From assembly GCA_030591825.1 (NCBI GenBank), contig JAUVAG010000059.1, forward strand, positions 1 to 6,904: a stretch of 6,904 nucleotides of DNA, in the 5' to 3' direction. Source of the DNA: Dethiosulfatibacter sp. (GTDB lineage: Bacteria > Bacillota > Clostridia > Tissierellales > Dethiosulfatibacteraceae). The notes beneath the pieces are model-generated. The model searched no databases. It saw only the letters and a program-made list of their open reading frames with translations, and was not told where the DNA came from. Below, one piece after another: positions 411 through 5,646 of this stretch; position 1 is the first letter of the stretch, and every line of letters begins with the position of its first letter. Position numbers and translations under genes: made by a program.

Positions 411-1649
411 ATGGAAAACAAATATTTTGATATTAAGGATACATTATACGATATAACAGAAAAGTATGAGGAAGCAAAAGATCTGCTAATATCAGCAGGA
501 ATAGACAGTATAAAGAATGAAGAACAAAGACAAAAAATAGGAAAATCAATAACCCTTGAAATGGCGCTCAAGATGAAGAAGGTAAATGTAGAAACCTTTT
601 CAAAGCAGTTGATTGGACTTATTGAGGCAAGTAAAAATACAATGGAGGAGCTTCCGGAGAAGACGGATACAGCTGATACAGACATTAGAATTGAAGGAAT
701 TCTCCCATGTCCAGTAAGGGTTCCTCTTATGGAATCATTCCAGGAATGGATGAAGGAACATGAAGCGGAAACGGATTTGACAATAGGCTACGAATTGAAA
801 GCTGCATCAATGGGAGTTGACTGGCTTAAGGATTCCCTCGAAAAGAGCAAATCGGCGGATGTGCTTGCAGATATATTCATTTCAGCAGGATTTGACCTTT
901 TCTTTGACAAGGATCTTATTGGGAAATATAAATCTGAAAATGTATTTGAAGATATTACAGGAATGGATCATTACAACAAGGACTTTGAGAATGATTATAT
1001 GAGTCTTAAGGACCCTGACAATGAATATTCAATGATAGGTGTTGTTCCTGCAGTGTTTCTTGTGAATTCAGAAGAATTGAATGGAAGGAAGATGCCTACA
1101 TCATGGGATGACATACTGGGAGAAGAGTTTGAAAATTCAGTAAGTCTTCCAATAGGAGATTTCGACTTGTTCAATGCAATACTATTGAACATACAAAATA
1201 AATACGGCGATGAAGGAGTTATGAAACTTGGAAAGAGTTTGCTTCAAAGCATGCATCCTTCTGAAATGGTGAAGTCACATATAAAGAAAACAGGAAAGCC
1301 CGTAGTTACAATAATGCCATACTTCTTTACAAAGATGACAAAGAGGGGTGGTCCAATGAAGGCTGTATGGCCAAAAGACGGAGCAATAATAAGCCCTATA
1401 TTCATGCTTACCAAGAAGGAAGGAAAGGAAAAGCTGAAGCCAATAGTAGACTTCTTCGCATCAGTAAAGGTTGGAGAAATACTTTCTCATAATGGAAGGT
1501 TCCCAAGTGTTAACCCTGATGTTGACAATATGATTTCAAAGGAACAGAAATACATGTGGTATGGATGGGACAATATAAAGAAAAATGATATAGGAAAACT
1601 AATTACTAAATGTGAAAAGCTCTTCCATGAATCAGTAAAGGAGGTATAG
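411..1649 (+). CDS. Cytoplasmic solute-binding-protein-like protein with N-terminal DUF1858/ScdA_N-like helical domain
   Basis: 412 residues. About residues 8-75 form a short helical module (DITEKYEEAKDLLISAGI, then TLEMALKMKKVNVETFSKQL) resembling DUF1858/ScdA_N domains, but without the cysteines usual after the AGI turn. Residues about 95-395 resemble a type 2 periplasmic binding protein of the iron/polyamine class: the tail VDFFASVKVGEILSHNGRFP followed by SVNPD is typical of that fold. There is no signal peptide, lipobox or membrane helix, so the protein should stay in the cytoplasm, which is odd for this fold. It has only two cysteines, C100 in LPCPVRVPL at the start of the binding domain and C401. 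The start ATG has GAGGTG four bases upstream. The GTPase gene begins one base after the stop, and its ribosome site lies inside this gene's end. Being first in an operon with a GTPase and an ABC ATPase suggests it binds the substrate they act on. The ligand is unknown; the fold call is by eye. Confidence 0.75.
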   Translation: MENKYFDIKDTLYDITEKYEEAKDLLISAGIDSIKNEEQRQKIGKSITLEMALKMKKVNVETFSKQLIGLIEASKNTMEELPEKTDTADTDIRIEGILPCPVRVPLMESFQEWMKEHEAETDLTIGYELKAASMGVDWLKDSLEKSKSADVLADIFISAGFDLFFDKDLIGKYKSENVFEDITGMDHYNKDFENDYMSLKDPDNEYSMIGVVPAVFLVNSEELNGRKMPTSWDDILGEEFENSVSLPIGDFDLFNAILLNIQNKYGDEGVMKLGKSLLQSMHPSEMVKSHIKKTGKPVVTIMPYFFTKMTKRGGPMKAVWPKDGAIISPIFMLTKKEGKEKLKPIVDFFASVKVGEILSHNGRFPSVNPDVDNMISKEQKYMWYGWDNIKKNDIGKLITKCEKLFHESVKEV

Positions 1650-1650
1650 A

Positions 1651-2352
1651 ATGAATTTAATAACAGTATCAGGCCCTCCATCATCGGGAAAGACATCGGT
1701 TATTTTAAAGACAATACAAGCCTTGCACAAAAGAGATTTGAAAGTAGGAGTAGTAAAATTTGACTGTCTCTATACTGATGACGACATACTTTACGAAAAG
1801 GCTGGAGTTCCAGTGAAGAAGGGATTATCCGGGTCGCTTTGTCCCGATCATTACTTTGTCAGCAATATCGAAGAGGTTGTACAGTGGGGAAGAGGCGAAG
1901 AACTTGATGTACTTATAACTGAAAGTGCTGGTCTTTGCAACAGATGCTCGCCATATATCAGAGATGTGAAGGCAATTTGTGTAATCGACAATCTAAGTGG
2001 CATAAACACTCCTAAGAAGATCGGTCCCATGCTGAAATCGGCTGACATAGTGTTAATTACCAAGGGTGACATAGTATCACAGGCTGAAAGGGAAGTATTT
2101 GCATCAAGGGTTCATTCGGTAAATTCGAAAGCAATAACAATGCATATAAACGGTCTGACAGGACAGGGAGCCTACGAGCTTAGCACACTTCTATATGATG
2201 AAAATGAAAATATAGAAACTGTAAAAGGCAAGGAATTGAGGTTCTCAATGCCGTCAGCACTTTGTTCTTACTGTCTTGGAGAGAAGAGAATAGGAAACGA
2301 CTATCAGATGGGTAATGTGAGGAAGATGGACCTGGGAGGAAGTGATGAATAA
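1651..2352 (+). CDS. CobW/HypB/UreG-like P-loop GTPase with CxxC motifs
   Basis: 233 residues. The N-terminus holds a Walker A motif GPPSSGKT (residues 8-15), followed by KVGVVKFD (31-38) with an acidic stretch like the switch I of SIMIBI GTPases. Residues 86-94, DVLITESAG, fit the Walker B/G3 region of the HypB/UreG/CobW group (compare the ESxG and ENVG forms there). TKGD (137-140) stands where NKxD is expected and would read guanine. Cysteines cluster: C39, C64, CNRC (96-99) directly after the G3 motif, C110, and CSYC (205-208) near the end, suggesting metal or Fe-S binding. Known relatives deliver Ni, Co or Zn into enzymes using GTP. A strong AAAGGAGGT site (1637-1645) precedes the ATG. 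The stop overlaps the start of the ABC ATPase gene, so the two are translationally coupled. It is not an obvious hypB, ureG or cobW, since none of their partner genes are present; its target is unknown. Confidence 0.78.
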   Translation: MNLITVSGPPSSGKTSVILKTIQALHKRDLKVGVVKFDCLYTDDDILYEKAGVPVKKGLSGSLCPDHYFVSNIEEVVQWGRGEELDVLITESAGLCNRCSPYIRDVKAICVIDNLSGINTPKKIGPMLKSADIVLITKGDIVSQAEREVFASRVHSVNSKAITMHINGLTGQGAYELSTLLYDENENIETVKGKELRFSMPSALCSYCLGEKRIGNDYQMGNVRKMDLGGSDE

Positions 2353-3941: not shown

Positions 3942-3947
3942 TATTAT
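3942..3947 (+). promoter_or_regulatory. -10 hexamer TATTAT of the hcp promoter
   Basis: TATTAT matches TATAAT at five of six positions. The region 17 bp upstream (3919-3924, CGGAAA) is not a -35 box and is nearly the same as in the operon promoter (CGGAAC), again suggesting activator dependence. The predicted start near 3954 gives a leader of about 46 nt. Confidence 0.55.
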
Positions 3948-3999
3948 AGTCCCATGGAAAAAAATACTTAAAAATAAATAAATCTAAGGAGATATTATT

Positions 4000-5646
4000 A
4001 TGAGCATGTTTTGTTATCAATGCCAAGAGGCAGCAAAAGGAACAGGATGTACAGTAAAGGGAATGTGTGGAAAGAATGACCAGGTTGCAAATCTTCAAGA
4101 TCTTTTGATTTACACTCTTAAGGGAGTAGCATTAGTAGCCAAAGAAGGACTGGAAGCAGGAATTAAGTTTCCTAAGGCAGATCATTATATGATGAACGGA
4201 CTTTTTATAACAATCACAAATGCAAACTTTGATGATGTTGCAATTGCAGCAAAAGTTAAAGAAGGATTAGCACTTAGAGATGAAATGAAAAAAGAACTTG
4301 CTGCAAAGGGTGTTGAATTCAAGAGCACTCATGACGCTGTAACATGGACTGGAAATACAGTAGCATCATTGGAAGCAAAGGCTACGGCTGTAGAGGTTGG
4401 AGTTTTGGCTACTGAAAATGAAGATGTAAGATCATTGAGAGAACTTATCATTTACGGACTTAAGGGAATGGCTGCATATGCAGAGCATTCATTCAATATT
4501 GGAAAAGAGAACGACGAAGTGTATGCATTTATAATTAAGGCACTTACTTCATCACTTGATGATACACTTACTGTTGAAGAACTTGTAGCACTTACTTTGG
4601 AAACAGGAAAATTCGGAGTTGCTGCGATGGCGGATCTTGATGCTGCAAATACAGGAGCATATGGTAATCCTGAAATGACTGAAGTAAACATAGGAACTAG
4701 AAACAAACCAGCTATACTTATTTCAGGTCACGATCTTGTTGATCTTGAGCAATTGCTTGAGCAAACAAAGGGAACTGGAGTTGATGTTTATACTCATGGT
4801 GAAATGCTTCCAGCTCACTATTATCCAGCATTTAAAAAGTATGATAACTTCGTAGGAAACTATGGAAATGCATGGTGGAAACAAAAAGAAGAATTTGAAT
4901 CATTCAATGGACCTATTCTTTTCACTACAAACTGTATAGTTCCTCCTAAAGAAGCTCATATTAAGAGAATATATACAACTGGAGCATCAGGATATCCTGG
5001 ATGTGTACATATATTACCAGATGAAAATGGAAAGAAAGACTTCTCACAAATAATAGAGCAGGCAAAAACTCTTGAGTCACCTGTTGAAATAGAAACTGGA
5101 ACTATTGTTGGTGGATTCGCACACGAGCAGGTATTTGCACTTGCTGATAAAGTTGTAGATGCAGTTAAGAGTGGAGCAATCAAGAAATTCTTTGTAATGG
5201 CTGGTTGTGACGGAAGAATGAAATCTAGAGAATACTACACTGATTTCGCTGAAAAACTTCCAAAGGATACTGTTATTCTTACAGCTGGATGTGCAAAATA
5301 TAGATACAATAAACTTAACCTTGGTGATATTGGTGGAATACCTAGAGTACTTGATGCTGGACAGTGCAACGACTCTTATTCACTGGCAGTAATCGCCCTT
5401 AAGCTTAAGGAAATATTTGAGCTTAACGATATAAACGACCTTCCAATAGCATACAATATCGCATGGTATGAGCAAAAAGCTGTAATAGTTCTACTTGCAC
5501 TTCTTTATCTAGGAGTTAAGAACATTAAGCTTGGACCAACTCTTCCTGCATTCCTTTCACCAAATGTAGCCAATGTATTGGTTGATACATTCGGAATAAA
5601 TGGAATAAACAATGTTGAAGATGACATAGAGCAGCTTTTAGGATAA
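4000..5646 (+). CDS. hcp: Hybrid cluster protein (hydroxylamine reductase / NO reductase, prismane protein), class I
   Basis: 548 residues, full length for the family. The N-terminus has C5, C8, C17 and C23 (CxxC-x8-C-x5-C), the class I spacing that binds a [4Fe-4S] cluster in strict anaerobes. All ligands known for the hybrid 4Fe-2O-2S cluster are visible: H244, E268, C312, C403 (the persulfide cysteine, in AGCDGR), C431, C456 and E491. The first three carry the same numbers as in the Desulfovibrio vulgaris protein and the last four are shifted by three, so the active site is intact. Hcp is cytoplasmic; it reduces hydroxylamine in vitro and NO to N2O in work on the E. coli enzyme, and protects against nitrosative stress. 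AAGGAGA (3986-3992) supports the ATG at 4000; an ATG two codons on is less well spaced. It has its own operator and -10 upstream and a terminator downstream, so it is probably monocistronic. No hcr reductase gene is adjacent, as is usual for class I. Confidence 0.97.
   Translation: MSMFCYQCQEAAKGTGCTVKGMCGKNDQVANLQDLLIYTLKGVALVAKEGLEAGIKFPKADHYMMNGLFITITNANFDDVAIAAKVKEGLALRDEMKKELAAKGVEFKSTHDAVTWTGNTVASLEAKATAVEVGVLATENEDVRSLRELIIYGLKGMAAYAEHSFNIGKENDEVYAFIIKALTSSLDDTLTVEELVALTLETGKFGVAAMADLDAANTGAYGNPEMTEVNIGTRNKPAILISGHDLVDLEQLLEQTKGTGVDVYTHGEMLPAHYYPAFKKYDNFVGNYGNAWWKQKEEFESFNGPILFTTNCIVPPKEAHIKRIYTTGASGYPGCVHILPDENGKKDFSQIIEQAKTLESPVEIETGTIVGGFAHEQVFALADKVVDAVKSGAIKKFFVMAGCDGRMKSREYYTDFAEKLPKDTVILTAGCAKYRYNKLNLGDIGGIPRVLDAGQCNDSYSLAVIALKLKEIFELNDINDLPIAYNIAWYEQKAVIVLLALLYLGVKNIKLGPTLPAFLSPNVANVLVDTFGINGINNVEDDIEQLLG

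What the first reader, a model, noticed from the sequence alone, without database searches (positions are those of the whole stretch)
411..5646. Candidate undescribed cytoplasmic system: soluble binding protein + SIMIBI GTPase + permease-less ABC ATPase + zinc ribbon, next to hcp
Seen: three tightly coupled genes (1-bp gap, then 8-bp overlap) encode a signal-less solute-binding-like protein, a cysteine-rich HypB/UreG/CobW-like GTPase and an ABC ATPase with no membrane partner. A six-cysteine zinc-ribbon-like protein and hcp follow on the same strand, and the operon and hcp share an operator. Known: SIMIBI GTPases load metals, SufC-type ABC ATPases act in Fe-S assembly, and Hcp carries a unique 4Fe-2O-2S cluster and acts in nitrosative stress. 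Inference: the set is a metallocluster assembly or repair machine, or a ligand-handling pathway for NO-damaged cofactors, rather than an importer.
Basis: partly seen in the sequence, partly recalled or inferred. Interest (0 to 1): 0.78.

Follow-up and report, generated by a model that had tools for sequence, protein, structure and literature searches.

The report
Nitric-oxide-response metal-loading machine beside Hcp
Three linked genes, found in genomes assigned to five bacterial phyla and often carrying the same predicted nitric-oxide-response DNA switch as the gene for the hybrid cluster protein Hcp, encode a binding protein without an export signal, a metallochaperone-type GTPase and an ABC ATPase without a membrane partner, and are predicted to load or repair the metal centre of Hcp, for which our literature searches found no dedicated assembly helper.

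Summary
The window encodes a signal-less binding protein (DUF1858 + SBP_bac_6), a HypB/UreG-like G3E GTPase, an ABC ATPase, a six-Cys zinc-ribbon-like protein and Hcp. The two shared palindromes match the published HcpR2 motif GTAACnnnnGTTAC and are its only exact sites in the 1.77 Mb held of this genome. The triad is a conserved unit; its GTPases form one supported group (100/99) across Bacillota and, by MAGs only, four further phyla. In 106 de-duplicated loci Hcp is the commonest neighbour (50 loci, always same strand), then the zinc-ribbon protein (40); no importer permease was found within 4 kb on the same strand. The box precedes both triad and hcp even where hcp is on another contig. In samples the triad is almost confined to hcp genomes, but most hcp genomes lack it. 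Sister triads often sit beside metal-complex importers. Invariant CPDH, CxxC and CxxC sites in the GTPase and a HypA-like ribbon suggest metal handling. Best reading: a cytosolic metal-delivery set, co-regulated with Hcp, that likely serves Hcp. The SufC analogy is not supported; metal, ligand and client are untested.

The parts
265..278 (.). HcpR2-type operator GTAACTTATGTTAC upstream of the SBP-GTPase-ABC operon
   Evidence: exact match to published motif GTAACnnnnGTTAC (PMC1274295, passages); one of only two exact sites in the held genome
411..1649 (+). Binding-protein homologue without export signal: N-terminal DUF1858 domain + SBP_bac_6 (FbpA/AfuA-like fold)
   Evidence: Pfam, hydropathy, AF2 model pLDDT 87 and Foldseek; tblastn match in 105 of 106 de-duplicated orthologous loci
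708..710 (+). Invariant Cys100 codon (LPCP motif), at the start of the helix after the first strand of the binding-protein fold
   Evidence: invariant in 28 of 28; strand 92-98, helix 100-117 in the model
1651..2352 (+). G3E (HypB/UreG-like) GTPase with invariant CPDH, CxxC and C-terminal CxxC
   Evidence: PF02492; nearest structures HypB and UreG by sequence (apart from repeat-summed RecA hits) and fold; 31-sequence alignment
1840..1851 (+). Codons for C64-P-D-H67, predicted metal site (resembles the UreG CPH motif, recalled)
   Evidence: invariant in 31 of 31 sequences down to 41% identity
1936..1947 (+). Codons for C96-N-R-C99 directly after the G3 motif ESAG
   Evidence: both Cys invariant in 31 of 31
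2263..2274 (+). Codons for C-terminal C205-S-Y-C208
   Evidence: both Cys invariant in 31 of 31
2345..3358 (+). Soluble ABC ATPase with N-terminal ~100-residue extension weakly resembling the start of DUF1858; intact Walker A/B, LSGGQ, H-loop
   Evidence: ABC_tran; 28-sequence alignment; hhalign of extension vs SBP N-terminus 81.7% over 32 columns
3557..3799 (+). Small six-Cys protein: MHxGC start and HypA-like zinc ribbon (CxxC...CxxC, plus one Cys)
   Evidence: six Cys invariant in 18 of 18; HypA is the commonest weak Pfam match, 12 of 18 members at E up to 0.01, best 4e-5
3906..3919 (.). HcpR2-type operator GTAACAATGGTTAC upstream of hcp
4000..5646 (+). hcp, class I hybrid cluster protein (annotated hydroxylamine reductase)
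   Evidence: PF03063, NF003658, TIGR01703 above cut-offs
5677..5700 (+). Terminator-like hairpin after hcp

Best explanation
The operon encodes a predicted cytoplasmic three-protein machine, sharing its predicted HcpR2 operator with hcp, that would use GTP and ATP to deliver a metal or metal complex, most likely for building or rebuilding the metal centre of Hcp under nitrosative stress. Proposed order, all steps inferred: NO or a related signal makes an HcpR2-type regulator switch on the triad and hcp together; the DUF1858-SBP protein captures a metal complex in the cytosol through a cleft that holds its invariant Cys; the permease-less ABC ATPase, carrying an N-terminal extension instead of a membrane partner, opens the binding protein or its client; the HypB/UreG-like GTPase takes the metal on its CPDH/CxxC sites and hands it on under GTP control, with the HypA-like zinc-ribbon protein as the likely last carrier where it is present; Hcp is the most likely client. 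Shown: genes, family matches, predicted folds, invariant sites, linkage, box and distribution. Not shown: metal, ligand, contacts, client.
For: Unit: tblastn matches to all three genes in 105 of 106 de-duplicated orthologous loci, some cut by contig ends; the exception L168 has no SBP match. GTPase group support 100/99. Regulation: box statistics. Of the 16 order-sample genomes with an exact box before the SBP, all 16 also have one before an hcp: 14 within about 160 bp, G004 and G006 at about 415 bp; in G001, G025 and G038 that hcp is on another contig than the triad. Boxes also precede triads of Fusobacteriota and Acidobacteriota MAGs. Linkage: Hcp in 50 of 106 loci, 52 of 52 ORFs same strand; zinc ribbon 40 of 106; Crp/Fnr-type regulator 24 of 106 (representative checked in Pfam). 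Distribution: class sample, 21 of 21 GTPase genomes have an Hcp-family match against 164 of 341 overall (hypergeometric 1e-7, not corrected for kinship). Metal: nearest solved structures HypB and UreG; G3E motif, six invariant Cys and one His; HypA-like ribbon; SBP fold nearest P5PA, FbpA, AfuA; sister triads beside FecCD/PF01497 importers, DUF364/DUF4213 'putative heavy-metal chelation' proteins and once NifH- and nitrogenase-component-like genes. DUF1858 is found fused to the Fe-S maturation protein SufT in four proteins (PMC4982691, one passage).
Against: Most Hcp genomes lack the triad (class sample 143 of 164; order sample 35 of 56), so Hcp can mature without it. Hcp's hybrid cluster holds no nickel (recalled), whereas HypB, UreG and HypA are nickel proteins. 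In 56 of 106 loci no Hcp lies within 7 kb (mean flank about 6 kb). One triad genome, G044 (85% complete), shows no Hcp. 38 of 101 triads have no box within one mismatch, among them the two Halanaerobium, two Spirochaetota and one Aminicenantota loci listed. In G004, G006 and G011 the motif is not rarer than the reversed control (3/1, 5/2, 12/6 sites). The zinc-ribbon protein is missing from most loci. An unspecific count of same-strand membrane proteins does not separate orthologous from sister loci (23 of 106 vs 5 of 19 within 4 kb). SBP ligand and ABC client are unknown.
Confidence: 0.4

Rival explanations
1. A general repair or iron-salvage pathway of the NO response: the triad collects iron (for example from dinitrosyl-iron complexes) released from damaged proteins and returns it to various Fe-S enzymes; Hcp is only its regulon partner.
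For: Same box without adjacency; Hcp is kept without the triad in most genomes; FbpA-type fold; DUF1858 proteins stand in other nitrogen-oxide contexts, e.g. an NnrR-dependent DUF1858 gene (PMC6710368, one table passage) and DrpB of nitrate-respiring Thermus (PMC6282519, one passage).
Against: A general repair role does not explain why Hcp is the top neighbour and almost always present. None of the 28 commonest neighbour clusters was recognised by eye as another NO-detoxification or Fe-S repair gene (most were not put to a family search).
Confidence: 0.27
2. A non-metal small-molecule pathway: the SBP binds an organic anion, amine or NO-derived adduct (relatives bind sugar phosphates, PLP, polyamines), and the ATPase and GTPase drive signalling or detoxification.
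For: Fold neighbours include AfuA (sugar phosphate), P5PA (PLP) and PotD (polyamine) beside FbpA.
Against: Invariant multi-Cys GTPase of the metallochaperone family, HypA-like ribbon, and sister triads beside metal-complex importers.
Confidence: 0.15
3. A decayed or shared importer: the SBP-ABC pair is an import remnant that borrows a permease coded elsewhere, with the GTPase handling the metal inside.
For: Sister triads often lie near FecCD or BPD permeases: 13 of 19 within 7 kb, 5 of the 11 loci that supplied no permease query.
Against: No export-signal-like start in any of 28 SBPs; no importer permease among same-strand membrane proteins within 4 kb in 106 orthologous loci, at most 9 loci within 7 kb.
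Confidence: 0.08
4. Mere co-residence: the triad is an anaerobe housekeeping set placed near hcp by chance or by shared regulator only.
For: About half of the loci have no Hcp nearby.
Against: Box, strand and co-occurrence statistics far beyond chance.
Confidence: 0.04

Closest known systems
HypA-HypB nickel insertion pair of [NiFe]-hydrogenase
   Same: G3E GTPase fold with Cys/His sites (HypB best structural match) plus a small protein with a HypA-like zinc ribbon
   Different: GTPase scores 45 of 121 bits for the HypB model; ribbon below the HypA cut-off; comes with SBP and ABC ATPase; linked enzyme is Hcp, which has no nickel (recalled)
UreG (with UreE/F/H) of urease
   Same: G3E GTPase, CPxH-type site, second-best structural match
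   Different: 32.8 of 204 bits for the UreG model; no urease genes seen in the window
CooC/CooJ/CooT of Ni-CODH
   Same: NTPase metallochaperone of an enzyme in the same prismane/CODH family as Hcp
   Different: CooC is a P-loop ATPase of another subfamily (recalled); no SBP or ABC ATPase; nickel client
FbpABC / AfuABC type ABC importers
   Same: SBP of the FbpA/AfuA fold and an ABC ATPase coded together
   Different: no permease, no export signal, a GTPase gene between them, ABC carries an N-terminal extension
SufBCD
   Same: soluble ABC ATPase in a metal-cofactor context
   Different: no SufB/SufD gene in the window; no SufC among the 60 best PDB matches shown (of 121)
HcpR2 regulon (Rodionov et al. 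2005)
   Same: operator GTAACnnnnGTTAC and hcp as target
   Different: the passages read name hcp, frdX and a few other genes, not this triad

Membership tests
G3E GTPase family | PF02492 above cut-off; Walker A; Glu in the G3 motif (ExxG); G4 KxD | tested here: met
   51.6 vs 20.7 bits; GKT, E91-x-x-G94, K138-x-D140 invariant in 31 sequences
HypB | NCBIfam equivalog TIGR00073 cut-off 121.2 bits | tested here: not met
   45 bits
UreG | NCBIfam equivalog TIGR00101 cut-off 204.2 bits | tested here: not met
   32.8 bits
COG0523 | CxCC motif (PMC9164220, passage) | tested here: not met
   no CxCC in the window's GTPase (sequence) or the consensus
SBP_bac_6 binding proteins | PF13343 above cut-off | tested here: met
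   269.7 vs 24.6 bits
Extracytoplasmic ABC importer binding protein | export signal and partner permease | tested here: not met
   no hydrophobic N-terminus in 28 of 28; no importer permease among same-strand membrane proteins within 4 kb in 106 loci
ABC ATPase | Walker A and B, signature, H-loop; PF00005 cut-off | tested here: met
   58.9 vs 25 bits; motifs conserved
SufC | closest relatives are SufC; SufB/SufD partners present | tested here: inconclusive
   not among the 60 of 121 PDB matches shown; no SufBD gene in the window; no direct comparison run
HypA | PF01155 cut-off 28.9 bits | tested here: not met
   window protein 18.5 bits; 12 of 18 members match at E up to 0.01 (bits of the others not shown)
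Hybrid cluster protein class I | NF003658 / TIGR01703 cut-offs; N-terminal four-Cys motif | tested here: met
   854.2 and 751.8 bits; Cys-x2-Cys-x8-Cys-x5-Cys read from the sequence (class label recalled)
HcpR2 regulon | exact or near palindrome upstream, conserved across genomes | tested here: met
   not in all loci (63 of 101 within one mismatch)
HcpR2 regulon | binding by HcpR and NO-dependent expression | not testable with these tools
   needs EMSA or RNA-seq
NTPase metallochaperone system | binds a metal and transfers it to a client | not testable with these tools
   only invariant Cys/His sites and folds

The most novel reading that the evidence does not exclude
A categorically new kind of machine: an import-style pair (binding protein plus ABC ATPase) that works wholly in the cytosol and, with a G3E GTPase and a HypA-like carrier, hands a metal complex to Hcp, making it the first dedicated assembly or repair factor set for a hybrid cluster; its sister triads do the same job for freshly imported metal complexes and, in one genome, a nitrogenase-like reductase.
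Probability: 0.3. Interest if true: 0.9.

Novelty: new variant of a known kind. Interest (0 to 1): 0.74.

Why it matters
How the hybrid cluster of Hcp is built or kept alive under NO appears open, and a 2026 survey of 1476 HCP operons found their neighbours too varied to extract much meaning (PMC13056359, neighbour section read). Here is a conserved, co-regulated gene set that makes the question testable by simple co-expression. If the mechanism holds, it would show that the binding-protein/ABC pair, known as a membrane importer, also runs as a soluble delivery machine, and would give a role to a large family (6420 GTPase homologue clusters at E up to 1e-20, sisters included; the named ones among the 120 listed carry generic or borrowed names such as 'GTP-binding protein' or 'Ni2+-binding GTPase').

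Tried and rejected
TAG codons flagged in four SBP relatives raised the thought of pyrrolysine; in all four they are the gene's own last codon.

SufC kinship: not supported. Ferric-ion binding by the SBP: fold match only; I did not superpose the iron ligands.

Rfam and tRNA searches: nothing in the window. RecA hits of the GTPase profile are repeat-summed P-loop scores of about 9 bits each, not kinship. Promoter-like hits are no more than in shuffles (26 vs 25.0); both operators are also listed there as terminator-like hairpins.

Importer contrast, limits: the permease queries came from eight of the 19 sister loci, so 13 of 19 is partly self-matching (5 of the 11 other loci are positive). A query-free count of same-strand membrane proteins (220-420 aa, at least 4 TM-like stretches) does not differ between the groups. 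I therefore put those of the orthologous loci to Pfam: of 59 within 7 kb, 9 are BPD_transp_1 (25 of 35 families shown); of 26 within 4 kb, none is an importer permease (all 18 families shown). ORF calling was by a simple script and may miss genes.

The survey could not be centred on another phylum, so class and phylum samples are those of the window. The Hcp threshold of E 1e-50 may also count CODH-like proteins, which would raise the background.

Rows dropped or kept: one search used 95 of 99 loci (SBP start at least 200 bp inside the locus); searches removed loci with identical GTPase protein or DNA; one search used 124 of 125 rows (one short) and set L168 (no SBP found) apart, where it fell inside the group; one search left L168 out, searches kept it. 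The 70% cut-off is arbitrary: G575 (L167) rounds to 70% but is a sister by tree and context. An earlier count gave 77 of 80 loci with all three genes; the recount is 76. Notebook entry 3 counts 12 of 12 orthologous GTPase genomes in the phylum sample; without G575 it is 11 of 11.

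
Full report
1. What is there. The window holds, on one strand, a 412-residue protein with an N-terminal DUF1858 domain and an SBP_bac_6 binding-protein domain but no export-signal-like start, a 233-residue G3E GTPase, a 337-residue ABC ATPase, an 80-residue six-Cys protein and a class I hybrid cluster protein. The end of a heavy-metal P-type ATPase lies upstream (2-208) and an RND pump gene on the other strand downstream (5850-6902). 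The window is contig C247 of a 68%-complete genome. A same-genus genome, G001, has a contig of the same length (52,866 bases) as the Dethiosulfatibacter aminovorans record, so the genus is probably Dethiosulfatibacter (inference).

2. The operator. The palindromes at 265-278 and 3906-3919 fit GTAACnnnnGTTAC, the HcpR2 motif derived by Rodionov et al. from hcp upstream regions of HcpR2-containing genomes (PMC1274295, passages read). They are the only exact sites in the 1.77 Mb held of this genome; the reversed control pattern has 12. Sixteen order-sample genomes, the window's included, have an exact box before the SBP. All 16 have one before an hcp as well: 13 (hcp places), and G004, G006 and G011; the distance is within about 160 bp in 14 and about 415 bp in G004 and G006. 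In G001, G025 and G038 the boxed hcp is on another contig. Of 48 sites in the 13 genomes, 26 are these two targets, and two more precede a Crp/Fnr-type regulator near the cluster (G019, G045). Of the 20 others, all fetched, one precedes a Crp/Fnr-type regulator, four lie 48-63 bp before a cupin-like gene (three above the Cupin_2 cut-off, one just below), ten lie inside an open reading frame, and five have no gene start within 180 bp. In G004, G006 and G011 the motif is not rarer than its reversed control, and the extra sites were not looked at. Over all orthologous loci, 63 of 101 SBP and 36 of 51 hcp upstream regions have the box within one mismatch, against 0.4 and 0.1 expected from single-base shuffles; 0 of 105 GTPase upstream regions do. 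With exact boxes within 250 bp and fewer loci: 45 of 95 and 26 of 45, with 4 other sites in 1.34 Mb; 17 of 49 loci without hcp in view still have the SBP box. Exact boxes precede triads of four Fusobacteriota MAGs (L076, L087, L106, L129) and an Acidobacteriota MAG (L132); the two Spirochaetota, one Aminicenantota and two Halanaerobium loci listed have none.

3. A conserved unit. The GTPase scan of named genomes found 458 relatives and kept the best 80. A maximum-likelihood tree of 124 GTPases puts the orthologues (104 and L168) on one side of a 100/99 branch and the 19 sisters on the other; the root is a midpoint and the bootstrap had not fully settled. Members come from Bacillota and, all as MAGs, Fusobacteriota, Spirochaetota, Acidobacteriota and Aminicenantota, so mis-binning cannot be excluded for the last four.

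4. Neighbours. In 106 de-duplicated orthologous loci, without choosing genes beforehand, the commonest neighbour clusters within 7 kb are Hcp (50 loci, 52 of 52 ORFs same strand), the zinc-ribbon protein (40, all same strand), a Crp/Fnr-type regulator (24 loci, 10 of 26 ORFs same strand) and ABC exporter-like proteins (24 loci, a large promiscuous family). BLAST with FecCD and BPD permeases taken from sister loci finds one in 2 of 106 orthologous loci, 4-6 kb away, and in 13 of 19 sister loci (Fisher 2e-11, inflated by self-matches; 5 of the 11 sister loci that gave no query). A Pfam scan of the same-strand membrane proteins of 220-420 residues gives 9 BPD permeases among 59 within 7 kb and no importer permease among 26 within 4 kb. 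An unspecific membrane-protein count does not differ between the groups. Sister loci carry FecCD permeases (9 of 19), Peripla_BP_2 proteins (10), DUF364/DUF4213 'putative heavy-metal chelation' proteins (5), BPD permeases (5), and in L148 a NifH-like protein with two nitrogenase-component-like proteins. L148 is from G027, which also owns an orthologous triad with hcp (L047).

5. Phylogenetic profile. Class sample: GTPase in 21 of 341 genomes, Hcp-family protein in 164; 21 of 21 overlap. Phylum sample: 28 and 276 of 398; 26 of 28 overlap, the exceptions G601 and G760 carrying sister-type GTPases. Order sample: strong SBP match in 22 of 60, Hcp in 56; 21 of 22 overlap, the exception G044 being 85% complete; here Hcp is so common that this says little. 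The relation is one-way: most Hcp genomes do without the triad. Genomes are not independent by descent and the samples overlap.

6. Anatomy. GTPase: closest to HypB and UreG by profile and fold (AF2 pLDDT 88); C64-P-D-H67, C96, C99, C110, C205 and C208 are invariant in 31 sequences down to 41% identity; by the HypB and UreG models it is neither. SBP: AF2 pLDDT 87, nearest folds P5PA, FbpA, AfuA, FutA; Cys100 is the only invariant Cys, sits where the first helix of the binding domain begins, and a PCP-like Cys is kept in many but not all sister SBPs. ABC: catalytic motifs conserved; nearest solved relatives MJ0796 and BceA-type NBDs; its N-terminal extension weakly resembles the start of the SBP's DUF1858 domain (81.7% over 32 columns). 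Zinc-ribbon protein: six invariant Cys and an MHxGC start in 16 of 18; HypA is the commonest weak Pfam match (12 of 18). That the HypA nickel site uses an N-terminal Met-His is recalled, not tested.

7. Interpretation. GTPase family, Cys/His sites, HypA-like ribbon, importer-linked sisters and a nitrogenase-like neighbour point to metal or metal-complex handling; box and linkage point to Hcp and nitrosative stress. I therefore commit to an NO-induced cytosolic metal-delivery set whose likeliest client is Hcp, at 0.4. The main counter-evidence is that Hcp lives without it in most genomes; repair or supply in demanding conditions, or a different client, would fit that better than obligatory assembly. 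NO induction itself is inferred from the published motif, not tested.

8. Known or new. The 2005 HcpR passages, the 2026 C. difficile hcpR study (passages: binding site only before frdX-hcp) and the 2026 CODH/HCP neighbourhood survey (neighbour section and passages: 'large variety of neighbors', FeS proteins 18% and regulators 17% for class I) do not name this set in what I read; their supplements were not read. A Fe-S assembly review mentions the hybrid cluster only in its references (PMC8593673, find) and a CODH maturation review only in passing (PMC6006190, passage); a class I HCP structure paper has no word on maturation, assembly or operon (PMC10210160, find). Paper searches pairing Hcp with DUF1858, HcpR, GTPase, assembly, ABC transporter, maturase or metallochaperone terms show no title or abstract start that names it; some searches listed only 15 of 26, 12 of 20 and 10 of 38 papers. 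Database names for the GTPase are generic. The library lacks most subscription papers.

Noticed in passing
window 3368-3469 and 3431-3541: Two head-to-tail copies of a 51-nt unit (92% alike) followed by a 47-nt inverted repeat between the ABC gene and the zinc-ribbon gene; role unknown.
   Followed up: no
L148 (G027:C35:231500-248000) 7612-16053: Sister triad directly followed by NifH-like and two nitrogenase-component-like genes, then a Peripla_BP_2 protein and a FecCD-like permease: an uncharacterised nitrogenase-like cluster with its own triad.
   Followed up: partly
L053, L054, L135-L144: Sister triads, in L054 and L143 with more than one binding-protein homologue, variously beside DUF364/DUF4213, radical SAM, methyltransferase and (L054) MoeA genes and iron-siderophore-type importers: looks like metal-complex import and processing.
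   Followed up: partly
L176, L178, L183, L187 (and near L171): Small cupin-like proteins have an exact HcpR2 box 48-63 bp upstream in relatives: a likely further regulon member. A similar ORF lies downstream of the GTPase in 5 loci, in L064 right after hcp.
   Followed up: partly
L141, L146 (Pfam-scanned); L145, L147 alike by layout: Compact triads, ABC without the N-terminal extension, close to a Crp-family regulator and an NMT1/phosphonate-type ABC importer.
   Followed up: partly
window 5850-6902, minus strand: C-terminal part of an RND (ACR_tran) efflux permease, cut by the contig end.
   Followed up: no
window 2-208: C-terminal 68 residues of a heavy-metal P-type ATPase, best model cadmium family, below that model's cut-off as a fragment.
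   Followed up: no
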